Assembly (NCBI GenBank): GCA_033065855.1 | Contig: JAVXUO010001056.1 | Coordinates: forward strand, 62,001-126,000 | Direction of reading: 5' to 3' | Source of the DNA: Escallonia rubra | Taxonomy: Eukaryota > Streptophyta > Magnoliopsida > Escalloniales > Escalloniaceae | DNA: 64,000 nucleotides | Shown here: positions 22,742-58,497 of the stretch, piece by piece | How positions within the stretch are numbered: the first letter of the stretch is position 1 | Layout of the letters: every line of letters starts with the position of its first letter | Notes under the pieces: generated by a model | What the model was told of the DNA's origin: nothing | The model's database searches: none | The model's input: the letters and a program-made list of their open reading frames with translations, nothing else | Position numbers and translations under genes: made by a program

Positions 22742-23420
22742 ACGTGCACGCACACACGCACGCATACACACACACCCACACACGCACCCACCACACAGAC
22801 CGGCGACCACCTGCATATCACCTAACACCCACATCCACACAGATAGTGGTGACCATCTTATGCACATCCCCAACACACTGGCAACCACCTTCTTTCGATC
22901 TCTCTCACACACGCACAGACACAACCACTCTCATTCATCACCACCTCCGAACCCCCCACCACAGCCATCAAACCCTTAACCCCTCCATGAGCCACAAAAC
23001 CCATCGGCGACCACCACCGTTACTAACCACAATATACACAATCCAAAGCAAACCCAGATCTACAAGAAGAACAACTTTGGGTTTAATTTGTGGGAGATAT
23101 TTTAAATAGGGTGTGATTTGTGATTGCCTCTGTGAATAGGTGTGGTGGTTGTAGTGTATATCGACAATGGTGGGTTTGTTTATGGTGGTCGTGGTGGCGG
23201 GGCAATGGCGGGTTTGTTTTTTGGTGGTGGTGTTGAAGGCAGTGGTGATTGTGCTGAATTGTAGCCATGTCGAGCCACGACCGGAGGGAACCGTGTGTGA
23301 TCTGGCCGATGTTGTGGTGGTAAACTGGTATAATCGAGGAGTGGCTGGGTTGAGTAATTTGTTTTTCTATGATCGGTATGTCCGATTTTTTATTAGTTTT
23401 GTTTACTCCGTGAACCGATA
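22742..23420. other. CA/CCACC-rich then GTGG-rich insert breaking the copia RT
   Basis: The copia RT reading stops in CA-repeat sequence. The first 350 bp are rich in CACAC and CCACC on the plus strand and the next 300 bp in GGTGGTG. This is the same layout as the interiors of the long-TIR elements in this window. I did not find matching terminal repeats or a duplication, so it may be a decayed relative. Confidence 0.4.
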
Positions 23421-35200: not shown

Positions 35201-35841
35201 CTTCTTCCTCCCCACCCCCACACACGCAACACCCGTAGTCCCACACACACACTGTCACAACCTCACCCCCCAAAAAAAAACAAAACACAGACCACCCCCA
35301 CCCCCACACACAGTCCCCCCACCCGCCCAACACAACACCCACTGTTACACACACGCACACTCTCTGTCATGGTGACACCCCCCACCCCCACATAGAGCAC
35401 ACACACACATGCATACCCCCCTCCCCTCCCCCCCCCCCCCCCCAAAAAAAAAAAAAGCACAACACCCACTGTCACACATACTGTCGTGACAAACCCCCAC
35501 CCCAACAAGCACAACACACACAGCACACAGTACGCAACACTGCCATGCCATTGTAAGCGTATGCACCATGTTTTCTGGAATGGGCTTGCTAGGCTTGAGG
35601 TCACTGGTGAATCTCATGTCGTGCCTTGACCTCTTCTGATGCCTTGTTGCTATCAATTCTCCGTCCAGCTTCTGATTTCTTTTGGATACCAAAAGTTGCG
35701 TGAGGAATCGATTCACTGTAATTGGTTTTGGTCATCTCGACTACTCGATACAGTGTGATGTCTGTCTGTTGTGCGTATGGGGGTGTCACAACAGTGTGTG
35801 TGCACGAGAGGGGTGGGGGGTGCACGTGTTACAGTGTGTTA

Positions 35842-35893
<52 letters not shown>

Positions 35894-38800
35894 GTTGTGC
35901 ATGTGTGAGAGAGACTGTGTGTGTGTGTTCGTTTGGGGGTGGGGGGATGTGTGTTTGACAGTGTTATGTGTGTGTAATGTATATTGTATGCTTTGTGGTT
36001 ACTGGTGAAGAAAGAAGAAGAAGAATATGGGAGAAGATGAAAGAAGAAGGAAAAATAAGGAAATGACAGTTTTACCCCTAAATTAACGGACTTGGATTGA
36101 CATAAGTTAACAGAATGATCTGATTGAAATGAATTTAAAATTTTAGTTGTCATTTTGACACAAATTGATGTCCAGTGACCAAGTTGAATTTGCCTATTGG
36201 TACAATTGTCAACTGAGTAGTTAACTCTTTTTATTTACATTTTGACCCCGGAAACTTCTGTTCTTTGTTTTGACCCCTGAAAATTCTTTTGGAAATATGT
36301 TTTCACCCCATAAGTATCCGATACACACCCGACCCGCATACTATCCGCACCCGAGATTTACGAAATAAAAAATAAAATAAAAGAAAAATTCTGGATAGGC
36401 ACCCAACGAGCACCCACCCGGCACACGACCAGCACCCGCACCCGACGAGCACCTGACCCCGGTGCTTCACCCATTTCGAAGCACCTGTGCTTCAGAGGCC
36501 TACGGCCACGGGGAAGCACAGCACATGAGAGCACTATCATGAAAGACGAAGCACAAAGAGGATGTCACGAAACCCTAGCAAAAGTCACACTGGAGATATA
36601 CTCTCCAATATCTAACTCTATGATGCCTTATATAATGGCGTGATACGCCCAATAATGTAATCATTTTATGCAAAACTGAATAGGGCTAGTAATCCGAATC
36701 ATAAGAGAACATAATGGGTCAAAAATACCGTCTCCCAGCTGGTTAGAAAATATCAGATCTTATTCAAACCCAAAACTTCAGCTAAAATTGGGTCATTTGA
36801 GCTCACTTCAGCTCGTACACTAATAAGTAATAACTGTGTTGAGCTCAAGCTTCAAGTTCAGCTTGTTCCAAAAATGAGCTCAACTAGTATCTTTTGTGAA
36901 CTGGATTGAGTTTGAGCAGTTCTTAGGCTCATTTACTGACAAGATGGCATCGACTCAGGTCATTTGATTATTCTTTGCTCATCAAACAATTCTGATATTC
37001 AGCTAGCTTCGAATCTTGGTTTGTTTGCTTGAGTCTTCAAAAAATAGCTTTAAACAATCACGGTAGAGTCAGACATCTCCTCGGAAGTTTATATCATAAA
37101 CTTTTTATTACCCATATCAAAGCTACCTTAACACAGCATTTACCTGTCAGTTACCCATAAGACAGCCAATGAAGCATCATAGAGAAAAAACTGTAATCCT
37201 CTAACTCTTACCAAATCCGAATACATTCTAAAGAAGTGATCGAGGGAGTTAACTAATACGGCGAGACTACAAAGTCGCTCAGAATTTGCAACATTGGCCT
37301 TTCTTATTTAAGACCTGGTCAATTACTTGCCACGTGAGGAAATCTTATCACACAATACTACTCTTAGCCTTCTATAGCTTCAAAAACGAAATCAGTACTG
37401 GCAGTTAGGCATATAAGAAATGACACTAAATAAGTTGGACCACTGCATGTAGTGATAACAAAGGTATATAAAATCTACCAATGTTGACATACTTACCTGA
37501 GATTTGAATGCCCTTATGGTTGACGATCCATCTAGCGTCTCTGTAAATGATGCATATATTGGTGAACGAGAAACACTATCTAGCCTTCGTAATTCCCGCG
37601 ATGTCGACCTGTAGTAGAACTGAAGAATCTTTCTTTGAGTAGACAACTCAAATGTCTGATAATCTTATTTTGGTGCATAGGGCATATAAATAGCAAAGCA
37701 TTTCGCTTACTGCATATCTTATTTCGATTAAGAAAGTATTTGTTGGATAGTTTCGGCTTTCAACCAAGCTCAAGGTAACACAAGAAGTTCTGAGACATCC
37801 CTTAATTTTATACCACTCAGAGATCAATTATATGAAACTATCCCTGGTAACTTCCCTAGAATCAGCAACAAACATTAACTGAGAAAAGCAAATCAATTTC
37901 CACAAGTATGAGCTCCTAATGCTATGTCTTGTTCAATTTCTAGGATAAGGGAAGGGATGCATTAAGAAGGTTTCTTTCCTGTAGCTTTTGGTATGTGCTC
38001 ATGTTCAGAAAGTTTTCAGATACAGTTTCTGAAAGGGATATCAAGCAACTAAGTTTTGGCAGTTTACGCAAACTCATTAGTAAGCTTATCGGAATGTGCT
38101 ATGGCAGGTATAATGTTCCACCTAGGCAAGTAAAAATTACATAAGCAAAAAAAGCATCACAAGGACTCGCTAATAGGTATGTACAAAATTGTGAATTCAA
38201 ATACGTCAACTCTCACGCACACTTCTCTTCCCCGCCCCCAGCCCAGGCCCCTGTGGGGGGCCAATCCAATCATCAGGAACAGATTTTCATATTGAATTGA
38301 TTATAAAGCATAGTAAATTGTCAAAACCAAAATAAGAGAGAACAAGTACCTGCAATTTGCTGTAGATATACCAAAATGGCAGTAACAGAAGCAAAAACAT
38401 GACCTGCACATATTAAGATTTGAAGTTTAATTTGTGCTGATGTGTGGAATATAAAACTCCTGGTACGTGCAGAACCAAATGAAAAGGCGTTATCACAACA
38501 ATTACCATTATTTACCTGTACGTATGACAGAACCACCGCAATCCCTAAGAGGCCAACAAAATTGGCCAGAAGGATGTTGAGAATAAATGGCAGGGAATCA
38601 TCAATCGTATAAAGATCTGAAGACAACCTACACGAACAATCAATATTTATGATGGAAGATTTTCATATACGTTTTTCTTTTGCAGGATTTCATGCTACCT
38701 ATTCAGTATTCTTCCAGTTGGGGTCTGATCAAAAAAGTTCACGGGTGCATCAACAAGCTTCTTTAACAGTCTATCGTGCACCTGAACAGCAGCACGCAAG

Positions 38801-41800
38801 CCACCAAATGCAAATGAGAATGCCCTCACTAACGTCAGCAAGGAATTCAAGATACAGAACATGCTTAGTATAACCTGCAACATCAATGCCAAAGTCAGCC
38901 AAGACAGTAAAGTCCAACTAAAATACTTAAATACCACAAGCCTCCTTTTCTTTGCACTTCTTTTCAAAAGTCTCTTGAATTCATTAGCTGCCGAAGCATT
39001 CTTTAGACTGGTCATAAACAAAATCCCTGAAGCGAGGTCTTATATTAGTTGCCAAGGAACAATTTTAGAAAGTACAGTCTCCGAAAAACCATCATCGACT
39101 GCTTAGGCATAACCTAAGCTGGTATATGGGCAACGTCGTTAGTGATTCTAAGCACTATTTTCCTTTTGTGGGTTTCCTTTTGGAGGTATGAGAAAAGGGA
39201 ATAGAGTTTTGATGACATGATAATAAAAAACATAACAATACCTGTGGGAACAAAAAATTCCATACTAACTACTAAGTTCTAGGCCATGCTTCTGAAGTTC
39301 TAACTATTTACTGACGGCAACTTCAGAACTGATTGCCTTCTATGCTCAACTCTCTAAAACCTGGCGTTCCTTGAAAACATTGTTAAAAGTCATAGAAGAA
39401 CGAGACGAGATCAGAGAGTTCCTCAGAATGTACCGTCATGAATCAATACCTAAATACTAAGTTTGTACATCCAATTCCTGAGTGTATTGAAGTTAAGAAA
39501 TCGTACCATTAAGCTACAAGAATATCCCCATAAGGTCAAATTAAAAAAGAATATTTACCAGATAAAAGGATGTTGAACGATCTTCTTGCTTCAATCCTGT
39601 GGTGTCAACCCAATATGACAGCCACAGATCACTTCCATTTCGAGAGGCTTGCATTAAAAATGCTGAGAAGCATGTTACAAATGTAATGAACCAACCAGAA
39701 AATGTAGCATAGTTTCTGCAGAAGAAGAAAATTGACTAACTTTTCTTCATCAAACAACAGGCTGAAAGTATAATGTGAAGAGGAAGTAAGGAGCTCAAAT
39801 ACACATCGCAAACGTTGAAACAGTCAAATTTCCTGTGAACAGTGAAATGTTACCCGCTTAAAGATTTACTCACTTGTACACGGTGAATTCAACTCTGCCC
39901 TCCTTCCTCTGCTCAACTTCAATGATATCTTGGGCTTCCTCAGAAACATGTGTGCAGTCACCATCTAGAATGACATCTTCTTGGGATATAATATCTATGT
40001 TTTGTTCTTGTTTTTCAACTTGAGAGGATACGTTAAATTCTTCTGGAGAAGAGAATGCCACGTATGGAGAAGAGAATGCCAAGGATACAGATGACTCAGC
40101 TGGACTTCCTGCCCACGTCACTCGTCCTTTATCCATTACCACCACCATATCAGCCGAAGATATTGCCTGAGGTAAAAGAAAGCCTCTCATATTCATAAGC
40201 CCTTTTGGGGGTGAACAAAAGGTTACTGAAACAATAAAGTACAATTTATGTTTTTCTCGCATTAGTGGGTGCTGATCCATGTAATATCATTTTTCACATC
40301 ACGCTACATATTGGAAGGACCAAATCAGTATTCTAAGGAAGTCATTTCAGACCAAACCATGGTCAGAACAAATGGTTACGTTAGTACAAATTAAAATCAG
40401 ACGATACAGAAAGACAGCAAAAATGGTCCATCAGTACTCAAATGTGAGTAATCTGATCATAGTTCCACTTGTAAAATATTTTTGATAGCTCGCAGTTCAC
40501 AAATCTATATGATACCACTTTGAAGGAATGACCAATCCATTTAGAGCGCATTTTGGCAGTAATGAAAGAAAAATTATGTACTAATTATTTCTGCTTCTAA
40601 GCAGATTCTCTGAACAACAATAGACTGTATACACTTCTCAGAATCCATGTCAAACCACTGGTAATCTATATCACAGTAATATGCTTCCCAAGGCAACTCT
40701 ATGCCAACATGATATTATAACACAGCAATAAAGGATGTATACTTGTTAGTTACACTTACTTCAATGTACAATAACGTGAGAAACAACAAAGAAACATGAA
40801 AATGTCAAGTTAGCTGCATGCTACATTACAATCATGGCCAAGAGCATGTACATTTGTGAATATAGAAAGTCAAGCAATGCATGCAGCCAACAAAATTCGA
40901 AACAGCTAGGGGCAAGAAGGGGTAATGGTACTATCAGGTGCAGGCCTAGGGGTGAGCACCAAACCGTTTAAACCAATCCGAAGCGCTCAAACAGAACCAA
41001 TCCAACCCGAACCGTCCAAAGATCTTAATAGTTCGGTTTAACATTTCTCAAACCGACCTTGATTCGGTTCGGTTCACGGTTTACATTTTTTAAACCAATT
41101 CCAAACCGAACCGAACCGACCTATGATATGTTAATCTATTTTTAGTAACATTCATTAATAATTTCACATATATGGTACTAAGAAAATTCAAATAAACAAA
41201 TCTTGAAAGTTAAAAGAAAAGAAAATAATGAGAACACTTATAACACAAAATTTTCATGACCAATATATATTCTATATTTACTCATTCTTTCTCATACATC
41301 AGTGAGCACTTATATATCAACTGTAACAAGATTATATGCAATTTTAAAAAATATAACTTCAATTTTTAATTATTATTAGATCCAATAGTAATGTGCAAAG
41401 GAACAACATCTTTAAGTGAGCGCAAACCGTTTAAATAGAACCGTTTAAACCAACCAAACCGAACCGTCCAAACCGATGGTGTTTGGTTTGGTTCGGTTCA
41501 CAATTTTCTAAACTGAGGGGTAATGGTTTGGTGTACGGTTTAACCCCCAAACTGAACCAAACCGAACCGTGTTCACCCCAAGGTGCAGCCAACTTGGGGG
41601 CAAGAAGATGCAAAACATAATTACTGAACAAATTTTGAAAATTTATAGCAACTCAAGACTCCCCTAGTTCAGATTGCCTTTATCTCCTTCATATTAAAGA
41701 AAGATAAGCAATAATGAAACTTTGTCATCTGACAGGCACACAACAGAACTCATATAGCAGACAAATAAACTACTCAATGCTAATTCTTTTAAGTTTTTAC

Positions 41801-44800
41801 GTACAGTATATTGATAATATTCAACTACTGCATTAGCGATAATTGCAGGATGTTCTGAGGGAATATCATACTTGCTTCAACCTGATTCCAGTTGCTAAGG
41901 GTCGAATTGGAATGGGTACTCATATAGCAGACATATATCGAATTGGAATCGGTACTACTAGTTCACTCGTTGATATCTCAGCAGAAACTAAGATATTGGG
42001 AAATATAACCTGTATATTATGGGTACAAAGAACACGTGTCTGCTGGTTCATAAGAGGACCAAGAATTGCATTTGATAAAATCCAGCAAGCAACTTGTGCA
42101 TCGACTGCACTGAGGACATCATCAAGCAAAGATAGATCAGAGCCATGGTAGACAGCCCTGTTTGTTGGCAAATATACAAGGATTCAAAAAGATCAGAGAA
42201 CTGCTTCATCATGCTCTTACAAATTTTTATTAACCACTGGAATTGAGAGATATTACCTGGCAAGAGCTAGACGGGCTCTCTGACCACCTGATAAGTTTAC
42301 TCCTTTTTCTCCAATATATGTCATGTCGCCCCCAACCATGCGTGAAATGTCAACATCAAGTGCACATGCCCTCAATACATCAGAATATCTGCCCAATGTA
42401 GAAAATTGATTCGCTGTTGGAAAAATTCATAACAAATGTATGAAGGCAAATAATACCAATAACAATAACAATAGTGAAAAATCTTTTTGGGCGTTTTTAG
42501 CAGAGAATGGGGAGTGGGAGGATGGAAATGTACCATCCCTCCACTTTATCATCCCTAAGTAGAGGAAAGGTGCCCATCTTCGGTGTTCTTTGGATAAGTA
42601 GTAAGGAAAAGTTGAAGGAAAGAGAGGATTTTGTATACTTTTTACATTTTTACCATTTAGATGCATTGCATATAGTCGTTTAAGCGGAAGTTAAACGAGT
42701 GTATTATCGTACTTTCCTTACCTCTTCCGCCCATTTTTGGGAGCAAAAAGTATGGTGGGCCCACCAAAAAGTGCATTTCTCCTACTTTTCCTTCTCTCCA
42801 TTGGTCCATCCCTCCCAAGTAAGGATATTTTTATCCATCCCTCCGTTCTTCCCTTCAAAGTTTTCCATCTTTCCTTTTTCCTCTCATACCATACAAGCTA
42901 GGGAAGAGAAGGTGTTATTCCCTCTGAACAGAGGAAGGAAAGACAGTTCTACTATATTACCACCTTAAATGCATTCAATGTACACATTTAAGGTGGGCCA
43001 CTCTCTTTTCCTCCCCTTCCCCGCACACTTCTGGGCACAACATATGGTGGGCCCAGAAAGAAAGTTCATCCCACCACTTTCCCATTTGCTCTTTACCAAT
43101 ATACCAATAAAACGAACAGTTTTTCCTATACTTATTGTTATTTGTGAAGTCACACCTTCTTGGATCGTAACCTTTTCCAAACAGAATATTTTCACGGATA
43201 GATCCAGAGAGGATCCATGGGCCCTACAGTTCCAGTCAACAAAAAAGAGCATAAGAAAGTTGTAGTTCTCAAAGTTTAGATATATTCTTCCACGCCAGGA
43301 CAACTTATCAACCTGTGGTACATATGAAATAGATCCACTTGAAATAATTGAGCCGTTGATAAGCCTCATTTCTCGGAGAATTGAGTTTAACAAGGACGAT
43401 TTACCAGAGCCAACCTGCAAGCACGTAGGTCAATAACACTGTGGATAAAGAAGAAAAGGATCTTTCATCCGAAAAAGAGGTCCATATGTCAGACGTTTGT
43501 TTTCAAGTTCTGCGGCAATCTCCTTTTTTCCTTTCTTTAAAGTAAAACATAACTCCGTGCCATCATCATGCATAATATCACAAGAACAGAAGTCTCCCAA
43601 CAGTATATAGGGAAAATCAGCAATCCAACATAACTTTCAAGTATAACAGAATGCCTGTAGACCAAACTACATTCTCTAAGAGCTTAGACATAAGGAGGCA
43701 ATGACAGCTGGGCAATTGCATGAAAGTAAAGCGCTTCAATCCTGCAGTCATATTCACGCCCAAATTTTTGCATAATGAGATGCCAGAATGGAGACTTGTT
43801 TTGCTTGCCTTAGTCTGAAAAACAAAAAAGACTCCTGGCAAGACCTCAAGTAGTCCTTAACAACATTGCTGCTGATGCCCAAAGTTATCCTTCTCATCAA
43901 GCGTAAGCGTAATGCAATCTTTTCAACATGACATAGCTGTAGAAGTTTGCTATAACAAGCAACCAATGCATAATATGACACAATAATCCTATACAATGCC
44001 TCCTTTAGATTGGTCCATTAACAAACAGTTAGATATGTAAAAGAAGGGTTTTCCAACCAAGTGGCCACGTTTTGGAAGAAATGTGTCAATAAGCAGCTTA
44101 ATAAGATAAGTATTCTTTTCCGATAGTTGCTGGTAATATCTGAGATGATGAAATTAGGGGCGGGAAAATGGGTGGGTGGATCGGGTTTCGTTGAGGATTA
44201 AGGGTTGTGTATGATGGGTGGCTAACCCACTTTAACCCATTTAGTTGTGGGTTCACTGGGTCATCCCTTAGAAGGGGGTGTATGTGTGTATGGGTGGGGC
44301 CAATTGCAAGTGGCAAGAATTGAATGCAAGACCTTGCCTAACTGTGCGCTCTAATACAATGCTAAGTTACCTGTTGCTCTAAAAGCGTACCCCAACATGT
44401 ATATGATTACTTCAACAGAGTGCCCAAGTGTTAGGTCGAGTTTAGGTATGGAAGGTGGTGATTAGCCACCTAAGAAGAATAGTCGTACCTTGAAGGGGTG
44501 GGCTCCTTATACCAATTGCCTAATTTCGAGCCTCTTCTTTTGGGTAAAGGAGGATTCCACAGTCAGTTATCACAGAGATGAACACTAGAGGTGAAAATAT
44601 TGGTCGCAGAATTCACCTTTCAGTTGCATCCTTTAGAAGGTATTGGGTGCAAAAAGCTATAGACAATGCCAGATGACTCAATCTAGGATTACAGAGTAGA
44701 CACTTTAGTTAAAAGAGGTATCTAACGAAAAAAGTAAAGGAGTGCATAAACAACAAAAGATGAAAAACTACAGATACAGACTTCACCTCTCCAATTACTG

Positions 44801-47800
44801 CAACAAAAGAACCCTTTGGAATGGCTAGAGTCACATGATCCAGTGTCAGCTCCTGCTCTTCCTGACCACTGATTGACCATGAACAACTTGCATCATGGAT
44901 GACAGCAGCCATATCTTCAAATGTAAACTCAGACTGGTTAACGGAGCATGATGATGATAAAGGATTGCTTGGGTGTTCCTGTTGACGTTCATGCTCAGAA
45001 CAAGAGAGAAATCTGCTCAATCGTCGAGTAGATATGATGGCCTGTAATACAAATAGAAGAAATGGAATTTTAGTTGAATAATGGACATTTACGAGAGCAC
45101 TTTACTCAACACTCGAGGCATATGAAAACTTACATCTATTAAACCATTGATGACCCATGGAAATGAGTTTAGCGGAGAGATCAAACTATTAAAGAGGGCA
45201 AGACAAGTGAAAACCTGTAATAAGGATTAGCCAAGAAAACAAACCATGAAATGTTGAAAGAGGTTGTTGCTGGGAACGAGCATATGTACTAGAGATACAT
45301 TGACTATACCGTTGCTGCATCAAGTTGATGTCCCGTTAATGCATAGAGTCCAAATGTGAACAAAGAGAAAAGAGTAGGGGTCGTTGCCCAAAAAAAAACA
45401 CACCACGCGTCCAAGTACTTCCTGGTCTGGTAGAAAACGGCCAAACATGAGTTGAACAGCTTTAAATATCTGTGTACTACAGTAGAGTGGTGAACAATTT
45501 CTTACAGATAAATGCGCCACTTCTGAAGATCTTGTCTTCATCAACCAACCAGTAAAAAGAAGCTCCCAGCCGTACATTTTCAGGGTGCGAATAAACGTTA
45601 AAAGTTCTCCTGTTCTTCTAATTCTGTGAAGCACGTACATGTCAGGTGTAACTATTTCCATGACAGCACATGATTTAGACCCTTAACACTTTAACATAAA
45701 ATTTTATTTTGCCAAATACAGACAGACTGCTTTGGTTTTAGGATAACAGCTGGGTAATGCTGATATGCTTTGGCTGGGTAATGTTGTCGTCGCTACTATA
45801 GGGGTCTAGGGAATTATCCTCCCATGCACAGACACGACTGAGAGCCACGGCTCCACCACAAGGCAAAACCGCCCTCAAAAAGGCCAGTCAAGAAGGTACT
45901 CTTGAGTTCCTTGGAAGGTATTCTAAGGCCAACACAAAGTGTAGCATATTGGATGTGCACAAGGTATTACACTATGAGACCCCACAACAGGTTGGGGAAG
46001 GCATTTTGGATGAATTTCTACATAAAAATTGAAAGAAAGATACCTACTGTCATTTTTTGTACATTATATAGTCTTCTAAAGAGAACTGAAGCTACCTATG
46101 CAAAATCTTGTGAACATTACGGAAGTACTTGAAACTGTAAGCATACATACCTCTCATCCTTTTGCTCCATCATGTTTCTTGTAGCCTTTGCAATCAATTC
46201 AGCAATCCATTTGTTAACTGCAAAGAGAACTATTGATTAGCAGAACATGTTGTTGTGAGTCTATAAGCCCAAATCATAACAGACTAGTCATGTTAGTTAA
46301 TCATAGGGCAAAAAGAGAACCTGACTGACCTGAACAGTAATTATATATTACAGACCATTATAGATGTGTCATAATTTCAGAGATATATAACAAAGTATGG
46401 ATGTCCAAAGCCGCAGCTCTAAATCATGTGAAAGTGGTTAATAAGGTTGCCACTTCGTTCTTAGAAAACAAGAATATAACGGGCTGTAGCACATAGAAAT
46501 TCATAACCATTGATTTACAGATTTTTAATCCCTCAAGTATGTGCTGAAAGTATCCCCACAAGTCTTGTTTGCAAATACAAATATGAAAGATCGCTACCAA
46601 CCTGGTATCAACAATATAGTGATTGCTAATCCAGAAAGAAAAGCAAATTTCACTTGTGTATACAGCAGATACAGTGCAATCCCGATTTGTAAAGGCAAGC
46701 TGACATAGTAAAGCATTAGAGTTAGGATTAGTCAATAGAAAAGTTGACCGATCCAAATGCTGCATGCAAAAAATTGCTCCGTTGACAGGAGTAACTAATC
46801 TGAACCATGTAAGGTTACAGCGACATAAACTAAAAATCATATTTCTTCTAATTCCACCAACTTAGAGCTTCACTATGTTTTACTTACGGGAGCCTCAGAT
46901 GACTAGCAAGGAAACACACTTCATCTCAAGCCAGACTGCAAGGCCTACTAGTAAACATTGATTTTTCGTCATTGTTCCTGTCCTCTGAGAGTTACTTATA
47001 TAGCAAGACAAGTGACTACTTCATTTTACTAGAAGAAGGACTCATGTCTTTGCCAGTTCTACACCATAAGGCTTAAGCAGTTGATAAAAAAAAAATTCAC
47101 TAAAGACCCCCCACCGACCCACCTACAACACCCGCACGCACACACGTGAGATCTCAAAAGGGTTATATTACGTTCATATCGTACGAAATTAGCTATTCGA
47201 GAGAAAACTCAACGGACCAGTCCTAAGGTAATAACAAAAAGGTCTGGAAGACTTAAAATTATGGGAAAGTTATGCTGAATCACAACTGACACTTCCAACA
47301 AGATGCTACTATTTACTAGCGTAATAATCAAAGGCTGCTAATTTATTGTCCACACAGCCACCACTTTAATTTAGAGACTTAGAAACAACTTAAAAATGGT
47401 AAGATAATTGATCATTCCTTATTTGCTGAAGAACATGTCGGAATCACTCCTCTCTACAGCAGAAGAGTTCAATTAAACGATTGAAGAAAGTTCAGAGTAT
47501 TTAACAATTTTAGGAACATAAGGAGACATTAACATACGGTTTGAGCATGAAATACAGTAAAGGAGAAGTTAAAGACCTCCACATATCATGAAAACTGTTG
47601 CACAAGTTGACAGTTCGATCAGCATCCACAGACATGAATGTCTGAATCTCCCCTTCAGAAAATTTTGATCTCTCTGCGAGGCTAACACATAAGCACTGAA
47701 AAAGATGTAAGCGCTAAAATTGATGTCAAGAGAAAATTTTTATTGAATGGACTATACTAGTTACTCATAGACATAAGTTGGGAAAAAACTTCCAATAACA

Positions 47801-50800
47801 ACGGTGGGACTATTTACTGCCATTTTGCTAAAATTTACACACCCTTTTAAAAAGTTATTTGTTGTTAAGGCTTAAATTTTGTTGTTATATACACAGTAGA
47901 CAATAAATAATCATGGAGGGGTGTGTGTCTAGTATAAATGATGTGTAAACAAGAAAGCTGACGCAACGAGCAGGCACCATTTCTCAATCTTTTCAAAGCC
48001 TTAAAATGATAAAATCGGTAATCATGCGATGCTTTATACCCTTTCTCGAGATTAAGTCACTGACATTGCAAAGTAACTTAGTTCAGAGAGAGAGAGAGAG
48101 AGAGAGAGAAATGATTGTAATGATTTGGAAGTCATAAAAAGGACCAAGTTCCTTTAGAACAAAAAGAACTATCCATGTAATTTAAAATGAGGTACGTTAA
48201 CAAAGCTTGAGTCACATATAATATCGGTTTACCTGTTGAAATATAGCAGACATGATACTAGATCGTAGCTTCAACTTTAACTTGGATAGGTGAAAAGTGT
48301 ACTGTGTATCCAGGAAGGATCTGCACCATCGAAGTAACACTCTTTACGCATTACTTTTAAACGAATTGGTGACATGAAGCACATATTCACCAGTCGGATC
48401 ACGTTTAGAAGAAAATATAGTCACACTGGTGAGAAACATCTTATTGCTGCTTTACATGTAACTTCTAACCACATTTGCTCCAACTTTAAAGTCTCATTGA
48501 CTGGGAATAAGTAATGCTCACACTTGCTACTGTCAAAAAGTTGTTCTGAGGTTGCATTTAAACCAATGAAAGTTTATCTAGAGAAAAGTACATGGCTGAT
48601 CACTTGAAAGCATTCAATAGGTATACAGCCCCCTTGTAGTTCAAATTTGGTAAGTTCACACAAGTTGAAGAAGAGATAGGAGAATGAAATTTTCATTGGA
48701 CAAATATATACTGCCATAACGCATTTCCTGTCTGGCGCTGGGAAGGAATAAACCATCACCCCAAAGAGACCAATGTTGGATGAAAAGAAGTAACAAAAGT
48801 AATCAGACTATTAGAAATTACTTTCCGACAGATGTGAGGCCCAAAGATATTGCAAGAATATAGCCATCATAATTCTGAGAACCTGCTTACAGGGAGAGAA
48901 ACAAAGCCATCAATAGGAAAATATGAACATTCTGCTTATGCTGACTAAGATTAATCAAAACCTAAAATCAAAACCAAAACCAAAAAAAAAAAAAAAAGAG
49001 TTGAAAGAAAACTAAATGCTACAGATTAATCTGGCTGCAAATGGCAAATAAAAGGCCACTTCACGTAGATTTATTCCCTGTTGTTAGGATTAACTAGTGT
49101 ATTCTGCAACGTATATCCAACAGCGACGACAAGATTCACATGGCATGAGTACCACTACTGACTTCGAGAATAACATATGTAGTTTCAGTGAAAAGCAGTT
49201 CCTTTCAAGAAAAATGTTGCAAACAGCTAGGAAAGTTATTCATAAATAGATCCGACTTTAACTGGAGGTGAAAAGGTAAACTAGTCCTTCAAAACTGCAC
49301 TCTTTCACATGGCAACGATAAACCTTATGGAGTGACTGAGCTGAAGCCATGGCGACGATTCACACTTGACGATTGGAACACAGAGACCAAGAGTGACTCA
49401 TTGCCATGTCTTCATCCAAACAATAGCAAAACTATATGGTCTTTGTGTGAACTTGAGATGAGATTAAAATGTTCGTTGACAGCATGAATCACAAGTTAAG
49501 TTGCCTTTCAGCAGTTCTAGGATCAGAGAAGGAGGAAGAATCAATCAAATTTGTAAACCTTGTTGAAGAAACCGAATCAGCTTATTGAGAAGCAGCGGGC
49601 TGGCAAAACCGATACAATCATTGATTACCTGCAAAAGGTTAGGAACTTATTTGGTAGAAAGGACTGATCTTGATCTTTTCCTATGCCCTAAGTGCTTTGA
49701 GGTTTTGAAATCGAGCTTTTGACAAGATAAGACTAATGAGTGCCCTGAGTTGGCCCTAAGTAGGATTTCAATCAAAGGAACACGACTCTCAGGGTAAAAG
49801 GGGATTATATATATGGTTAATTAAACATGCCACAAATATTCATCTGACATCACACATCATAAGTTGGCATGATATGACGAGCATATTGAGATCGACCACC
49901 ACTTCATCAAGGAGAAACTGAATAATGGGCTGATCTGTATGCCCCTTGTGAAGTCCAGTCATTAACCTTGCTAAAAAAAGGTCTTGACAGCAAAGTTTTT
50001 ACTCCCCTGGTGTACAAGTTGAGCATGAGAAACATCTACGCACCAACTTGAGGGAGAGTGTTGTGGGGGAAGTAGTTGCCATGGTAAGGGTACTTTTCTG
50101 ATCATCTCTATTTTTAACTTACATAAGAAGTGACTAGAGTGAAAGTAGAGTTAAGCTCTCATTCTGTTTTCCATATCTTCTCTCTCTCCCCCTCTCTTCA
50201 TTCCTTGTTATCAGAACCCTAGAATCATATTTCAACTCACACATAACATGCTGATGTTCGACGCTATTGAAGATTCTCTACAAAAGTGCAACTTTACCAA
50301 TTTTGCGACAAAGTAGGGGAACATGTCAACCTACACCTTTCTGTTGTCGGAACTTAACAAGGAGCTGTTTGTTCTTCACAAATTTGCACATACACAGAGA
50401 CATGATAGATTTTCTCCTCATGTCTCTATTGCTGTTCCAGCGTCAACTATATAGGGGTGGTTTGTGTCCAATCATGATAGCTCTAAGCATGAATTGAAAT
50501 GAAGACAAAAACCAATTAAGGTTATCACTTCAAGACATAACAATACAGACATTGAGCCTGTGAGATCGTCTCTTGAAAATCCTATTTCCATTATTGTGCT
50601 TTGCAGGAAACGAGTTTTGAATCTCGTGTAGGATAATTTAGCAAGAAAAGCTGGAAGAAACTTTTCAAAATCACGCCCACCTTTGGCATGTAGTACAATA
50701 AAACATTTCTTAACCTCCACTATTAATCTGTTTTGATCATGTTTTCACAAGTGCCCAGGAAAAAGTGTAAGCAGGGCGTTGAAATGAAAATTTGTCTCTG

Positions 50801-53800
50801 TTTCGCAGAGCTGTCCAAAAAGAATACTGGAACATTCCGAGAGGATTCACAACGAGTCGGTCACACTTTTGAAGTCCCATTTTTTCTAGTTCTTTGTATT
50901 TGGGTGGAATATAGCTTTGTGAAAACCAAGGTATTGGAGGCATCTCATAATCTCTTCTGTGGTTTTTCTTATTTTTTTACCTTTTTATCTAGACAGGCCA
51001 GATGACTGAAAAAAAGAATACCTTTAGCAAACCAAGACGGAGATATGGCCACCCATATGCACAGCAGATTGCTTTAAACAATGAAGGACGAGAGCATTGA
51101 GTTGTTTGCTGAGCTTTCCAAGAGCTTAGCAGCATATTATAGCAGGAAAATGGATCCATATCAATAGGTAGTTGAAGCAAATCTTCAAAGTCAAGCTGCT
51201 TCGTCACCCCATGCTCCATTACAGAAGCGATGGAATTGAACATTATCAAATGCCAACAGCTATAAGTGATTCCCTTTAACAACCAAGTAAAACAGAAACC
51301 ATTATTAATATTTAATTAAAAGTAAAAATAAATAAATTTAACACAGAACACTTCTAGATGCACTTAGCATTGAAGCATATACTGTCAATACAGTTCTTAG
51401 CCTTCCGACAATCACATCATTGATGCTACAGCCTTGCTATTGTTTGTGGCATAATGTTACAACCTTGCTGATCGACATTATTTAAATCACTAATACCAAC
51501 TGTGTCTAAAGACTAATCTGTAGCAATCTGTATGAGCTACAATTGAAAATGAAGATCTCAGGATTGAGAGTCCCTAACTTTTTGCAAATTATAAATATTC
51601 TACAGTGATTTTTATCAGGACCAATGGAGCTACAACTCCACCCAACTATAGACTTCAAGACCGGATCCTGAATGGGGCTATAAGAACTACACCCTCACGG
51701 GCTACATTGCTAGACCCTAGATGGGCACAAGAAAGATGAAAGCTAACGAGCTAGTAGCTTTCATCCGAAGGAGATACCTAGATGGGCGAGGACTATGATC
51801 ACTACATACCTCGTGGGACTGTGAGAACTGAACCCCAAGGAAGGCTATAAAACTGGGCAGAGACAGGCTGCTTAAAGCTGATCTGAAGGAGATATTTAAC
51901 TACTGTTCTGGCAAGACTTGACGCTGCCCACCCTTGAGTAGTGAGATGTGACATTAGAGCTAAAGATTGTTAGAACATTAACATAACAACCCTTCCCCAC
52001 AGTAAAACGAATTTACCATGGACACCATGCTAAACATTCGGTAATTACATCAACAGTGAAATTATATTGTGAAAGATGAATTGAAAATATCATAAACGAA
52101 GAAGTTTATAGACGAATCCTGTCCAAGGATGAAAGAGAAGTGCCTGCATTTTTGTCATCTAATAAATAACATTCAAAGGATGTTTGGATGTGCTAATGAG
52201 GTTTAAGTTTGTGGGAAAATGTTACTTAGGAATTGGTGACAAGTTAAATATTTCCATTTCATATGTCACTGATAGGCAAGGAGGCTAGCAGGGCCAAACT
52301 GCAAGAGGGGGTTCCTCAAAATTGTAAACACGTGAAATGCTGGTGGAATGGGTCTTTTGTAGACATGCAAATGCTTAACAACTTAATAAACCCAATTTGA
52401 GCTCAAACTTTCGAGGAGGCAATCTCACCAAGAGATAGAGTGACAAGGACTTAATGACACAATACAATGAAGTGCCTAGAGAAACAGATATTTGAAACTT
52501 CTGCATCACTTCTTTGGGATAACAAATCTACTGCTACACCTTAGATGAGTTGCCTAAGTCGGGCATCAAAAACGACGTAGTTTGGATGAGAACTTATAGG
52601 TATTTTTTCATTTCATTGATTTCATAATGTCGTTTTGCCATATCATTTAAGAAACTAATCCAGTTACGAAGTTTCAAAAGCCTGCCTAGACAACTTGCCC
52701 TAACATAGACATATATTCATCCTTCCCTTATTTCTTACTTACACATTAGTCTTAGTCTAGGAAACATCTTGTTGGGACTTGAACTCCCCAACTCCTGCTT
52801 CAAGGTTTCCATTGATGCCACTTAAGCTACACAACAGGCTAATAGAGATTTAGGAAGGAAATCATTTGTTCCTGTAACACATTGCATATATTTACGTGTA
52901 CACACACATCCATTCGACATTGGTGCGTAGCCATTACGAAGATGTGGAGATGGTTGAATTCGATATACACGAGAAGCGGAGTATAAAGAAATACACCGGA
53001 AGAAATTAGAACAAAATGCTAGATCTAAGACAGTTAAGAATCAATTAGAATTACAGGAAATTCTAACTAAAAATTCAGGGAATGTGCTGCTAAAACTAAA
53101 GTACACCACACAGAAATAACAAGAACGCAGAAAAAGTACATACATTGTTTGAACAATGACCTTCTTCAATGTCCAATTTGTGGGAGAGAAGTGACTCTTC
53201 CTTTGAACTATAGTTTGCAAGTAAACATAGTATTAGTAGATTATATTTGTCTGAGAAATACAAGAAACCAAGTGTGGCATCAATGGTACGTAAATTTTGA
53301 ATCCGCTAACAAAACAAGATGTGCATTCCAGGGAGGCAGTACATGTCTATTGTGTTGGCACGATATGTGCAGATGTGTTTACACTAAAACATATACATAA
53401 AATTACATAGATGGAGAGAGAGACAGAATATATGAAACAGATCCTTACAAATGTAATGAAACAGCTAAAAATAAATAACCTAGTGGAAAGCTGGGAAGGT
53501 TCAAATTTATGTTGTTAACTAACCCTGCATAACCTTAAGGAAACCACGTTCTTAAGTGTGACATAATGGAACACTCATGCCAAAAGGTTTCAAAGTTTCA
53601 ACTATCCAAAATCTTATTCCTCTTCCCTGGAAAAGCGGCCTCAAAGACACTTAGAAATGTCAACAAGTCAATAAACACCTCTCTTATATTTTTTTAGGAC
53701 TCACACATTGTTCCATGTCTTCAATATATAGGACTCTTTCCTTACATTCCATGTAACAGCTGAATAAACATACAAAAAGTACAATAACCTCCACATTCAT

Positions 53801-56800
53801 CTGGGAAAAAGTGGGAGACAATTTCATCACTATTCATAAAAAATCATTAAATTCACTTCAGGTAAAAATCTTTCAAAGAAGTTTAAAAACTTTGTGCACT
53901 TCCTATTGAGCTTAAGAACTTTCCCTTTGTCAATCCAACTGTTTCAAAGAAACATATGGTATCCTATCCAACAACACAGTCCTATCAGCACATGAACCCA
54001 GTTGGCCATGGCAGCAATGGATATCACTACAGATAACCCAAACTCCATTCTTCTACTTGGTACATCAACTCAGGAACCTAAGCTTCAGCCTTGATCATCA
54101 GTTAGTTCAACCCAGCCAAATAGAACCATATAGCTAAATAGACAAATCAAATTCTCTAAACTTTTAAAACAGAACTATCTTATAATTGTGTTTTGACTAT
54201 AACAATAAGAGGGAACAACTGCTACCATGATCACCATGAATTCATAAGAATTGCATCAGCTAAATCTACTTATGACACTCAATTAAGTAGAATGGTAAAG
54301 TAAGATTATTGGGTGCTTGCATCATCACGTTGAGCTGGGGTGCATGAAGGTAATGATTCCCAAGTGAAGAAATGTGAAATTGAGATGGATGAAGATAACC
54401 TGAGATATTTCTAGCAATCAAGTCTATTCTCACTACTTCTTCCCATGTTATAGGTCTACCGCTGCATCGTCTTACCCCCGTCAACTAGACACATATCACT
54501 TCTTTCTTACTGAGGCATCTGAAGGCATACGTTACCATCTCAAGAGATGTTCCCTCATCTTTTCCCCTATTGGTGCCACCCCCACCTTCTTGAGGATATC
54601 CTCGTTTCTTCTTCTATATCTCCTTGTGTAGTGGCTCATCCACCAAAGTATTTGCATTTCAGTTGGACATCTTGTGCGTATAATGTTACTTAGTTGCCCA
54701 AAATTCTGAACTATACAACATTGGAGGTAAATATTTCCCTCAATGTGAGAGGAATTTTACGAAATACACCTCATCAATCTCACCGTCCTTGAGCATTATT
54801 CAACCTAGATAACTAAGGTTATCTTTCTTAGCCACTTGTTTCCCATCCATATTCACTTCACTCCCACTTCCCCCCAGTCTTACTACAATTGCATTCCAAA
54901 TACTTTGCCTTAATCTGCTTGACCTAAAGCCGTTGAATCCTTGAGTACTTATCAATAATTCTGACCTAACATTTTAGTTCTCCTCTAGTCTCATCAATTA
55001 ACACTATACCCATCGACAAATAACATCCAGCATGTGGACCTCATCTTGAATAATCTCTCCCAAAAGCCAAAAATGAAAAAGAAATGCAGGGCCCAGTATA
55101 AAAAACTCAACCAGTATTATGGTGAAAGGCTGCTTCCAATTCTTACAATAATTTATTTGTATCACGTAGTGATCTTTTTCTACGCAATTACTATTTCACA
55201 GTCCAGAAGCCAATATCAAAAGTCACATTTTCTTGCCAGCTAAAAACCAAGACAGGGAGTGACATACGGCCGGTCATGCATATCCTTACACTACTTCTAA
55301 ATATGGTCCTAACTTCTTCTTGTCCACTTTTGTCCTTCAACTTTCTCATTGTTCAGTAAGGATTCCTTATCCTATTGACCTTCGAATTTTCCTTGATAGT
55401 TTTGAATGCATCAGGTTACTTCCTTTAATTTTGTCATCCCTACATTACAATGTCCAATACTAACTTTACTACTGCCCACTTTCTTTTTCTAAATCTCACA
55501 TACATTATTCCAGTAGCCATTCAATATGCACACGCCATTACGGTAATCCGACCAAACATATCATAGTAGATGGAGGGAAAAGTAGTGAGTGGATTAACAC
55601 CTTTAATATCAAGCATAACAAACTTTTATAATATGGATAGCAAAGGGTTCAGGAATGGCTGACCTCTTGAGATTTGAGCCCTTTATTCTGATAACATTAA
55701 CCATGATGCCGAACATGATATCCACCAAGGCAACAAAGCTCTCTTTAAGACATGCAAAAGCCTGCCAGAGCCATTTTCACACAATCTCAAGTCAACCAAA
55801 CAATTCAACCGCTAAAGCCACGAAATGTTTGCCACATGCATTCTAGGATTTTTGGCATCAAACTTTAATTTCGTTATTCTTCCGTCATACAGGGGAAACA
55901 TATAACTTTGTAGTGGGCATCATAAGTAAGTCGGTTAAAGGTCTATGATAGATGATGTAATGGATTTTGACATGCTTTTAGTGTCCGAATTGGTTTGAGC
56001 ACAACATCTTCCTCAAGACTCACCAGTGGCAGATATGCATCCAGGGGAAAAAGGATTCAAATTCGACATAACTACATAATAGTGCAAAGTTGATCATGGT
56101 GTTAGAAAAATTATGTACGTTTATCAGGAGCTCTCCCGATAGAAAAGAGAAATTTTGAAAAAAGTATAGCATATGCTAGGATAAATCCTTGGATACTGAT
56201 TTAGATTCTTGACTGAAATGTGGAAGCGAAATAAGCTCCATGAATAACCAAAAAAAAAGCAATCCTGGGTTCACCAGGGTTGCTATATCCCCTATTTAAG
56301 TAAACTATTATGCTAAATCAAGTTGTAACTTAAAAAGGCTTGGGAAAATTTAGCTATGCGCGAACGGAAAAAAAAAATACCTCCAAAGAAGAAAAGGCTG
56401 TCTGCAGATGAGGGACCCCCAAGAAAGGTTTCATGATCCACCAGAAGCACAATAACCGATTCGAAAATACAACAAACCAGTAGTCACACTTTGAGACCAC
56501 CAGAATGGTAACCTACAATTTTTAGCACAAGGGAACCCAGAAGTTGGCTGAGACTTAAACCAGACGCTGTCCGGAACAAACTTCAGAGTACTTTAGAACT
56601 TACCCAGAGAAAAAGTTGAGAGCATCTAACTAGCCATTCATGATAAGAAACAGCATAACCACCTAGCGATTTCCTCACGAGCAGAACCATATCAAAGCAT
56701 GCCATGCATGCTCCGAGAGCAGGTAGAAGGTGCAAGAAGACCTTCTCTGAAGGGTATATCTGTGCAGCTTAGTAAGATCCGTGAGTATATGAAACTACTT

Positions 56801-58497
56801 TCGGTGTAAAAGAATGCATAAGCAAAAACTTACCTGCCACTACCATGAAGTTGAGAAACGAAAGAGAAGCTCATGTTTATATCACTAAAAAGAATTGAAA
56901 CGGACAGAGTGAAGAAAGAGGGGGGTGTGTTATTTACTAACGATCAACAAAAAGAAAGAGCCATTTAGAAACGCTTCCAGATGTGAGTGCCATAATCAAT
57001 ATCAGGAAAGAAAGGAAAAAAAAAGGGAAATAACCTCTTTTTTATCAGCCCGACATTACTAAATTGTATCCGCGAAGCATACTAAGCTATTGAACTCAAC
57101 TGTCGATTGATTATGAGAGAGACCCGGCCAGGTTAATTTCGTTGTTAAAGTTCGAACCATTGGAGCACTTCAGGAGTGTTCAATATATTGTTTATCATCT
57201 AAGCCTTCATCCAAATATTGAGGTCAACTAAAGTATTCAGCTTGCTTTCGAGCTCAAAAAACCATCGCAATTTGGCTCTCAGAAGCAAATGAGTAGGTGC
57301 ACTGAATACCATTCTCGATAGAAATGAATCCTTAAGACGAGAGAGAATGAGAGAGAGAGAGAAGAAAGTAATAAAGCAAAAAGGGAATCCTCAATAAGAA
57401 ATGCAGAGTGTAAACAAGGGAAGTAGTGAAGGCGTATATCCTGCAGTCTGCTTAAGCTCTTTCATTAGTAAATCCACCAAACCTGCCTATCTTTCAGGGA
57501 AGAAAATTTGGTGCCAAAAGATTGGAGGGAAGGAAGACAAATAATCAACCTCAGCCACCTATCAAAGCATATTAACCATGAACTGAAATCTCACCTTCCT
57601 ATTTCCTCTGGCCGTCCTTTTAGTTATGCAAAGCACCACAACTATAACCAATGTCACTAAATTTACTCCAAAACCTAGCACTGTAAATACTGCTAAGGAA
57701 AAACAACCAAATACAGCAGTACTTTTGGTATTATGTCGAACAGCAATATAAACATGAAGTCTTGAATAAAGGATATATGTCATCGAAACACTTTGACATT
57801 CCATTGCCATCCCATACCTGATCACAGAATATAAACTATCAAATCAATTAGAATCACATAGAACACAGGGAGTCACAGTCTTACAAATTTCCCCACCCGC
57901 CTAATTTGGTAAGAAAGCCTAGTAAAGCGACAATAATATGTGATTCACAATCTACGCTTATTCAACAACGCCATTGCTCACATGTCACTACAGACGCTCA
58001 ACTTCAATCGGGACCTGAGAGTTGCCACTTTCTGACGTTTCAACCACTAATGAACTCATGTCAATATACTCAATATTTTTAAATTTTTTTTGGTTAAAAA
58101 TAAATTCCCGTTACCTCCAAGCAGACAGAAATCTGCATGCTTAGCCTAAAAACTTACGAAAATAAAAGGAACGGTGTAATTCACGATATTTATCTTTTTA
58201 GCAGCTGACAAACTCTAATCTAGAGCCAAAGCGAGAGCGTTAATTAGAGCGGCAGAGTTGACACGCTAGGTAGATAGCCGGAGCAACTATAAACAGCACG
58301 AGCGTGGTCCACTTTAGAAGGATTTCGGCAAACACGACTAAAAGGACGAATTGACAAGCTCAACGATGATCTAACGCAGATTCCTCTCGCCGTATTCACG
58401 AGAATCGTGAGGACATCAAAGACAAACCGAGCCTAAAGGAGAGAAAGCGAGAGCGTACGTATGGAGAATTAGGGCAAATAAGCTTCAGCAACTCCAT
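29500..58497 (-). CDS. ABCC13: ABC transporter C family, ABCC13/MRP11 type, 36 exons
   Basis: Predicted full-length ATP-driven exporter of the MRP class, probably at the vacuolar or another endomembrane; substrate unknown. Thirty-six exons over 29 kb sum to 4386 nt (1461 aa) with every phase matching, so no break is evident. Order: N-terminal membrane region, TMD1, NBD1, linker, TMD2, NBD2; exon lists are in the part entries. NBD1 has Walker A VGSGKSS (about 644-650), LSGGQ (about 732) and Walker B LSLLDD with Asp in the catalytic position. NBD2 has GRTGAGKSS (1258-1266), signature FSVGQRQ (about 1360), Walker B VLCLDE with Glu1385, and the H-loop TIAHR. A degenerate NBD1 and a competent NBD2 are normal for this class. 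The start [13 protein letters not shown] follows the ABCC13 N-terminus I know. Introns carry an AT-AC intron and many transposons. Confidence 0.95.
32820..33015 (-). repeat. tRNA-related dispersed repeat in ABCC13 intron 29
   Basis: Read on the minus strand, the stretch contains AACATGGTTTCGCTAGGTCTTGAGTTCAATTC split by short gaps, resembling an initiator-tRNA-like head with box B. A related segment lies at 44290-44395 in intron 18. Ends and duplications were not resolved. Confidence 0.35.
34843..34869. repeat. (CT)n microsatellite
   Basis: About 13 CT units in ABCC13 intron 28, just outside the TIR element. Confidence 0.9.
34930..36227. mobile_element. Long-TIR element, 1.3 kb, in ABCC13 intron 28
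   Basis: Inverted repeats of about 150 bp begin GAGTCAACTACTCGGTTGAC on the left and, read inward from the right, GAGTTAACTACTCAGTTGAC. Flanks share the 8-bp TTTTTATT (34922-34929, 36228-36235). The inner end of the right TIR, AGGGGTAAAACTGTCATTT, nearly matches that of the 27300 element. The interior runs CCCCACCCC and CACACA on the left and GTGTGT and GAGAGA on the right, including a long (GT)n(GA)n tract at 35844-35894. No transposase is present. T-rich duplications are less informative than the others here. Confidence 0.8.
35844..35894. repeat. (GT)n(GA)n microsatellite
   Basis: About 14 GT units followed by 11 GA units within the right half of the TIR element. Confidence 0.9.
40944..41580. 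mobile_element. hAT-like MITE with AACCGAACC motifs, ABCC13 intron 22
   Basis: The 637-bp insert is flanked by the perfect 8-bp AGGTGCAG (40936-40943, 41581-41588), the duplication size of hAT elements. Ends read CTAGGGGTGAGCACCAAACCG on the left and, inward from the right, TGGGGTGAACACGGTTCGG, a common plant hAT terminus. Subterminal regions are packed with AACCGAACC, TCGGTTCGGTT and CCGTTTAAACC. The middle is AT-rich and non-coding. Confidence 0.85.
42450..43148. mobile_element. Possible degenerate MITE in ABCC13 intron 20
   Basis: AATAACAATAACAATAGTGAAAAAT on the left (from about 42458) is matched in inverse by sequence at about 43110-43145, and GTGGGCCC occurs near 42760 and 43050. Similarity is patchy and no duplication was found. 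The right end lies within about 10 bases of the exon 20 splice donor. Confidence 0.35.
44190..44400 (-). repeat. tRNA-related dispersed repeat in ABCC13 intron 18
   Basis: On the minus strand it shows a box-A-like TAACTTAGCATTG and a box-B-like GGTCTTGCATTCAATTC, similar in layout to the repeat at 32820-33015. Ends not resolved. Confidence 0.35.
45134..49628 (-). other. ABCC13: ABCC13 exons 9-17 (TMD1)
   Basis: Exons: 49628-49559, 48882-48822, 48320-48233, 47695-47577, 46699-46602, 46217-46151, 45623-45506, 45426-45310, 45214-45134; residues about 286-558. Recognisable blocks are [78 protein letters not shown] and [20 protein letters not shown], all standard for MRP membrane domain 1. Exon 12 has the coupling-helix region. 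Confidence 0.92.
48085..48109. repeat. (GA)n microsatellite
   Basis: About 12 GA units in ABCC13 intron 11. Confidence 0.9.
52690..52850 (-). mobile_element. SINE-like tRNA-derived element in ABCC13 intron 7
   Basis: Read on the minus strand, box A TAGCTTAAGTGG (52829-52818) is followed by box B GAGTTCAAGTCCC (52786-52774), the spacing of a tRNA-derived head. Target-site duplications were not located. It is a different family from the 5975 SINE. Confidence 0.5.
54260..55075 (-). pseudogene. Decayed LINE reverse transcriptase remnant in ABCC13 intron 6
   Basis: Minus-strand frames, shifted and with stops, read in order [18 protein letters not shown], [38 protein letters not shown] and [16 protein letters not shown]. 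This is the C-terminal order of plant endonuclease/RT LINEs (typically SRTKTEYM, FKYLGS, DGEID, ENRLRWFGH, GRPKKTWEEVV). Many stops show it is dead. It runs in the same direction as the host gene. Confidence 0.75.
57683..57776 (-). other. ABCC13: U12-type AT-AC intron 2 of ABCC13
   Basis: The 94-nt intron starts ATATCCTTTA, an exact match to the U12 5' splice consensus ATATCCTTT. It ends TTTAC, with a branch-like TTCCTTAGC whose A (57694) is 11 nt before the end; the consensus is TTCCTTAAC. Joining exon 2 (...GAC AT) to exon 3 (A GTG CTA...) gives DDIVLGFGVN, as the family predicts. The best GT-AG alternative adds nine or so residues not expected in the family. Confidence 0.85.

What the first reader, a model, noticed from the sequence alone, without database searches (positions are those of the whole stretch)
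57683..57776. AT-AC (U12-type) intron in an ABCC13-type transporter gene
The donor is ATATCCTTT, identical to the minor-spliceosome consensus. A branch-like TTCCTTAGC sits 11 nt from a terminal AC. Only this splice gives the family reading across the junction (DDI|VLGFGVN) and keeps the full 36-exon model in frame. AT-AC introns are rare, and the exons on each side are tiny (41 and 88 nt), so automatic GT-AG gene callers are likely to mis-call the N-terminus of this gene.
Basis: partly seen in the sequence, partly recalled or inferred. Interest (0 to 1): 0.75.

Follow-up and report, generated by a model that had tools for sequence, protein, structure and literature searches.

The report
Rare AT-AC intron in plant transporter
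A plant transporter gene contains a rare kind of intron that looks as if it is cut out by the cell's second, minor splicing machine, and automatic gene-finding programs misread the start of this gene because of it, here and apparently in related plants.

Summary
In an ABCC13 gene of Escallonia rubra (minus strand, 36 exons, 58497-29500), intron 2 (57776-57683, 94 nt) begins ATATCCTTT, holds TTCCTTAGC with its A 11 nt from the end, and ends AC. Eight of eight orthologue-guided spliced alignments chose it although AT-AC was penalised and the motif not scored. The other 34 introns are GT-AG.

New evidence comes from annotation errors. Of 146 orthologue models, all 11 that keep exon 2 and run past its end continue Tyr-Pro, as retained ATATCCTT would read. 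Seventeen that enter exon 3 from upstream carry Thr (an AC ending); five do not. None of 61 insertions at other junctions shows Tyr-Pro. The intron thus looks shared across eudicots.

Corrections: 21 GT-AG pairs also stay in frame, none giving the family sequence; some deposited orthologue models use such splices. The branch site has one mismatch. No RNA was available. A new, well-supported member of a known class; modest interest.

The parts
57683..57776 (-). intron 2, AT-AC, 94 nt, phase 2, U12-type signals
57768..57776 (-). 5' splice site ATATCCTTT
   Evidence: last six bases complementary to AAAGGA of U6atac copies in the same genome
57692..57700 (-). branch-site-like TTCCTTAGC, one mismatch to TTCCTTRAY
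57683..57684 (-). 3' terminal AC (followed by AG in the exon, so ACAG)
57777..57817 (-). exon 2, 41 nt, [13 protein letters not shown](I); skipped in the public model
57595..57682 (-). exon 3, 88 nt, (I)[12 protein letters not shown]...
58459..58497 (-). exon 1, 39 nt, [13 protein letters not shown]
57690..57691 (-). decoy AG acceptor (CAG|TAT) inside the AT-AC intron, used by the public model
29500..58497 (-). ABCC13 coding region, 36 exons, 1466 aa and stop

Best explanation
57776-57683 is a U12-type AT-AC intron removed by the minor spliceosome. Inferred mechanism: U11 and then U6atac pair with ATATCCTTT, U12 pairs around TTCCTTAGC and leaves its A as branch nucleotide, and the AC 11 nt downstream of that A is joined. 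This completes a split Ile codon (AT|A) and keeps the ABCC13 N-terminus [25 protein letters not shown]. Shown: the motifs and spacing; that among the pairs enumerated this one gives the family reading; that U6atac genes exist in the genome; that mis-annotated orthologues carry translated traces of the same intron ends. Not shown: the splice in RNA, the branch nucleotide, dependence on the minor spliceosome. GT-AG gene callers cannot make this splice and so skip exon 2, truncate, or run into the intron.
For: 8 of 8 spliced alignments; the donor matches 8 of 8 and the branch 8 of 9 positions, first of the gene's 35 introns on both, the next having 7 and 7; without AT-AC the N-terminal alignment score falls from 612.5 to 591.2. 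Tyr-Pro in 11 of 11 models that keep exon 2 and run past its end, 0 of 61 insertions at other junctions. Thr before the exon-3 Val/Ile in 17 models. The Punica insert is compatible with TTCCTTRAY at 9 of 9 positions, 9 nt before its AC (7 of 500 shuffles as good). U6atac at 8 loci over the cut-off, four of six aligned copies with AAAGGAGAGA. Branch-to-end optimum 11-13 nt, no polypyrimidine tract, AT-AG disfavoured (PMC3584512, passages).
Against: No RNA. The branch motif has a mismatch at the usual branch position. A good AG acceptor (57690) and 21 open GT-AG pairs exist. Five models reaching the exon-3 start lack Thr there. Three of the four longer read-through inserts tested show no convincing branch motif. 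Searches for U12, U11 and U4atac did not complete. Most of the 61 control insertions look like ordinary indels rather than intron read-through.
Confidence: 0.95

Rival explanations
1. A normal GT-AG intron is used: donor GTTTCG at 57789 with acceptor CAG at 57690 or TAG at 57675, giving an in-frame N-terminus 2 or 5 residues shorter.
For: Open frame; best choice when AT-AC is forbidden; acceptor 57690 scores above 29 of the gene's 34 acceptors. Models P0066 (Theobroma) and P0092 (Hibiscus) show the CF|GVN deletion of the second variant.
Against: The donor scores below all 34 GT donors of the gene. It loses residues that 85 of 146 models keep ungapped. Another Theobroma model, P0086, has the full reading.
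Confidence: 0.02
2. A GT-AG intron with donor GTTTAT at 57753 and acceptor ACAG at 57681 is used, putting eight residues (YPLFKTSL) in place of Val.
For: Open frame; moderate donor score, above 8 of the gene's 34; models P0038, P0060 and P0094 appear to use splices of this type.
Against: The start of the insert is the translated ATATCCTT of an unrecognised intron; 85 of 146 models read straight across.
Confidence: 0.02
3. The public model is right: exon 1 runs on to 58429 and joins 57690, and the 41-nt stretch is intronic.
For: It is the deposited annotation (P0001) and stays in frame.
Against: It replaces a family-conserved stretch; the same model lacks 150, 9, 31 and 26 further residues and is labelled partial.
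Confidence: 0.01

Closest known systems
U12-type introns, AT-AC subtype
   Same: 5' ATATCCTT, TCCTTAAC-like branch site, AC end (PMC2831892, passages); branch 11 nt from the end, within the 11-13 optimum (PMC3584512, passages)
   Different: Branch motif TTCCTTAGC has G where the consensus has A; a U-rich stretch precedes it and makes a good decoy AG acceptor
Gene models lost or mis-called because of non-canonical introns (PMC5716242, passages)
   Same: The caller skips an exon beside a non-GT-AG intron
   Different: Here errors at one orthologous intron recur in models from many species and can be read back as evidence for the intron

Membership tests
U12-type AT-AC intron | 5' splice site ATATCCTT at +1 to +8 | tested here: met
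   8 of 8
U12-type AT-AC intron | Branch site TTCCTTRAY | tested here: met
   8 of 9 positions; the mismatch is at the usual branch A
U12-type AT-AC intron | Branch site 11-13 nt from the 3' end (optimum) | tested here: met
   11 nt from the A at position 7
U12-type AT-AC intron | Terminal AT and AC | tested here: met
   fixed by homology in 8 of 8 alignments
U12-type AT-AC intron | No polypyrimidine tract before the 3' end | tested here: inconclusive
   none between branch site and AC, but a U-rich stretch precedes the branch site and CAG at 57690 scores well as a U2 acceptor
U12-type AT-AC intron | Same intron at the orthologous place in relatives | tested here: met
   indirectly, from read-through proteins; no DNA of relatives
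U12-type AT-AC intron | Minor-spliceosome RNAs in the genome | tested here: inconclusive
   U6atac found; U12, U11, U4atac searches not answered
U12-type AT-AC intron | Splicing depends on the minor spliceosome | not testable with these tools
   needs RNA from mutant or knock-down plants
Plant ABCC13 transporter | ABCC layout, two ABC_membrane and two ABC_tran regions | tested here: met
Plant ABCC13 transporter | Closest named relatives are ABCC13 | tested here: met
   best hits bearing that name have 62-66% identity to the query; no tree was built

The most novel reading that the evidence does not exclude
The ABCC13 AT-AC intron is an old minor intron kept across eudicots (read-through traces from Ranunculales to asterids) as a splicing bottleneck: its retention, or escape into the nearby in-frame GT-AG decoys, would give alternative N-termini or no transporter when minor-spliceosome activity is low. 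Retained-intron models such as the Punica isoform would then be real products rather than artefacts.
Probability: 0.1. Interest if true: 0.55.

Novelty: new member of a known kind. Interest (0 to 1): 0.3.

Why it matters
AT-AC introns are about 0.06% of annotated plant introns (PMC6310983, abstract passage). This one lies near the start of a conserved transporter gene and misleads annotation repeatedly, so a good share of deposited ABCC13 N-termini are wrong or missing. The useful general point is that mis-annotated orthologues carry readable traces of the intron ends (Tyr-Pro for ATATCCTT, Thr for AC), so a minor intron can be followed across species from protein databases alone. The biology of the intron itself is ordinary for its class.

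Tried and rejected
Rejected: the 21 open GT-AG pairs (none gives the family sequence); the public model; AT-AG from the same donor to the ACAG two bases on (not among the open-frame pairs); the idea that only one splice keeps the frame (wrong).

Led nowhere: protein search by N-terminal region gave 7 hits, one new. Papers (search listings only, none of these opened): U12-type intron with ABCC13, 0; At2g07680, 3; U12-type, intron, plant and multidrug resistance-associated protein, 1, on another subject by its title; U12 intron, plant, ABC transporter and AT-AC, 1, on a mite; ABCC13, Arabidopsis and splicing, 7, none on this intron by title and start of abstract. U12DB, ERISdb and IAOD are not held, so I cannot say that the intron is unlisted for other plants. 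Branch-motif read-back of three of four read-through proteins was weak. No read-through model was seen among the monocot, magnoliid or Amborella proteins inspected, so the intron's class there is unknown. Rfam and tRNA scans of the window found nothing.

Full report
What it is. The finding lies in a gene on the minus strand. Its joined open frames match plant ABC transporter C family member 13; the best hit is an Escallonia rubra model, P0001, labelled partial. The window's contig is 286,012 bases, the same as the contig listed for P0001, and P0001 is letter-identical to my model in blocks of 490, 431 and 273 residues. The window is therefore E. rubra (asterids, Escalloniales). The 223-base region gave one match in the 566 Mb genome.

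Gene model. I wrote a protein-to-genome spliced aligner that allows GT-AG, GC-AG and, with a 6-point penalty and no motif bonus, AT-AC introns. With eight orthologues the gene comes out at 36 or 37 exons. The consensus has 36 exons, an open frame of 1466 aa, 34 GT-AG introns and one AT-AC intron at 57776-57683, the last chosen in 8 of 8. Two further AT-AC introns appeared once each at the poorly conserved exon 6/7 junction and were left out of the consensus.

The intron. It is 94 nt and phase 2, with donor ATATCCTTT, TTCCTTAGC whose A lies 11 nt from the end, and TTTAC at the end. Published features are ATATCCTT, TCCTTAAC and AC (PMC2831892, passages) and a branch distance of 11-13 nt (PMC3584512, passages). 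About 26% of U12-type introns in Arabidopsis are AT-AC (PMC7367187, passages). Over the gene's 35 introns it ranks first on both motifs (8 of 8 and 8 of 9); the next has 7 and 7. The donor-branch pair occurs once in the window and in none of 100 shuffles; the spacing range was chosen after seeing it, and the first range tried gave none. ATATCCTT alone is no more common than chance.

Rival splices. None gives the family sequence. With AT-AC forbidden the best choice joins 57789 to 57690; its donor scores below all 34 GT donors of the gene, while its acceptor scores above 29 of 34. That acceptor is the one the public model uses, after running exon 1 on to 58429 and skipping exon 2. The public model also lacks exons 4-7 (150 residues), stretches of 9 and 31 residues, and the last 26 residues. 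Deposited orthologue models also show fallback splices: P0038, P0060 and P0094 appear to leave from inside the intron and enter at ACAG; P0066 and P0092 delete five residues. These could be read as support for GT-AG use; I take them as prediction artefacts, because other models of the same species or genus read straight across (Theobroma P0086 against P0066, Trifolium P0061 against P0067, Prunus P0021 against P0125).

Orthologues. Plant DNA other than this genome was not available. I inspected 146 proteins: the 120 listed (of 579 found), one new, 25 new (120 listed of 580). Of these, 85 read ungapped over the junction. Eleven keep exon 2 and run past its end, and all eleven continue Tyr-Pro: P0038 Bauhinia, P0044 Paulownia, P0060 Penstemon, P0067 Trifolium, P0070 Shorea, P0073 Populus, P0087 Erythroxylum, P0091 Macleaya, P0094 Nepenthes, P0120 Punica, P0125 Prunus. 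A retained E. rubra intron would read DDIYPLF, so Tyr-Pro is TAY CCN, bases 2-7 of ATATCCTT. In seven the residue before is Ile, which excludes G as first intron base if the phase is the same; in four it is Leu, which does not.

At the other end, seventeen models have Thr just before the exon-3 Val or Ile (P0001, 15, 32, 44, 45, 54, 70, 73, 87, 88, 90, 109, 111, 120, 121, 125, 139), which needs AC as the last two intron bases; in P0001 the window's DNA shows this directly. Eleven were found by the script and six by eye. Five models reach the exon-3 start with another residue there (P0043, P0124, P0128, P0135, P0140), two of them without the Val codon. Six more enter inside or after the Val codon and cannot be scored (P0003, P0038, P0060, P0062, P0075, P0094). 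Four ungapped models also have Thr in that slot (P0022, P0024, P0039, P0142) and are not counted. The remaining models start downstream or skip the region.

Control and caveats. At other junctions 61 insertions of three or more residues show Tyr-Pro near their start in 0 cases (one protein under 1100 residues was left out, and most of these insertions look like ordinary indels). At this junction the same script listed 11 insertions, 9 with Tyr-Pro; the other two were models without exon 2. Some rows are related: P0088 and P0121 are both Camellia sinensis, P0045 and P0073 the same poplar hybrid. Macleaya is in Ranunculales; the orders of the others are from recall. The Punica insert is compatible with a perfect branch site 9 nt before AC (7 of 500 shuffles as good); P0044 and P0070 reach 8 of 9 (93 and 102 of 500) and P0073 7 of 9 (361 of 500).

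Machinery. U6atac is present at eight loci over the family cut-off, with none in the tool's 14 control genomes, whose nature I did not see. Six copies were aligned (six of eight); four carry AAAGGAGAGA on one strand or the other, complementary to TCCTTT of the donor. Searches for U12, U11 and U4atac did not complete.

What is inferred. That the intron is spliced in vivo, by the minor spliceosome, with the A of TTCCTTAGC as branch point, is inference from sequence. Four of five orthologues from unnamed 'lgn' contigs of 4.6-4.9 kb show the spliced reading; the fifth, P0040, lacks the N-terminus. They are probably cDNA, since the E. rubra gene spans 29 kb, but the source label is not explained.

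Verdict. A genuine, well-supported, apparently conserved member of a known rare class. The predicted mis-annotation is confirmed for the public model of this very gene. That ab initio callers miss non-canonical introns is already published (PMC5716242, passages).

Noticed in passing
window 49629-51021 (-): Intron 8 of the same gene has donor GTATTCTTT (7 of 8 to RTATCCTT) and GTTCCTAACC near its CAG: perhaps a weak second U12-like (GT-AG) intron, perhaps plain U2.
   Followed up: partly
window 29500-58497 (-): The public E. rubra model of this gene lacks exons 4-7, stretches of 9 and 31 residues and the last exon, besides its wrong N-terminus.
   Followed up: yes
window 18793-20481 (+): Long open frame with zf-RVT and RNase-H-like reverse-transcriptase domains, a non-LTR element remnant by its look.
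   Followed up: partly
window 21159-21770 and 22444-23109 (+): Pieces with GAG-pre-integrase/integrase and RVT_2 domains, Copia-type by its look.
   Followed up: partly
window 26126-27055 (+) and 11839-12438 (-): Open frames with a GNAT acetyltransferase domain and a phospholipid methyltransferase (PEMT) domain, likely exons of neighbouring genes.
   Followed up: no
protein P0120 (Punica granatum isoform X2), no window coordinates: A deposited model that appears to retain the whole intron in frame (102 nt), with donor, branch and acceptor traces all readable in the protein.
   Followed up: partly
L002-L009 (genome G000): Eight U6atac loci over the cut-off; L006 and L007 deviate from the AAAGGAGAGA stretch and may be pseudogenes.
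   Followed up: partly
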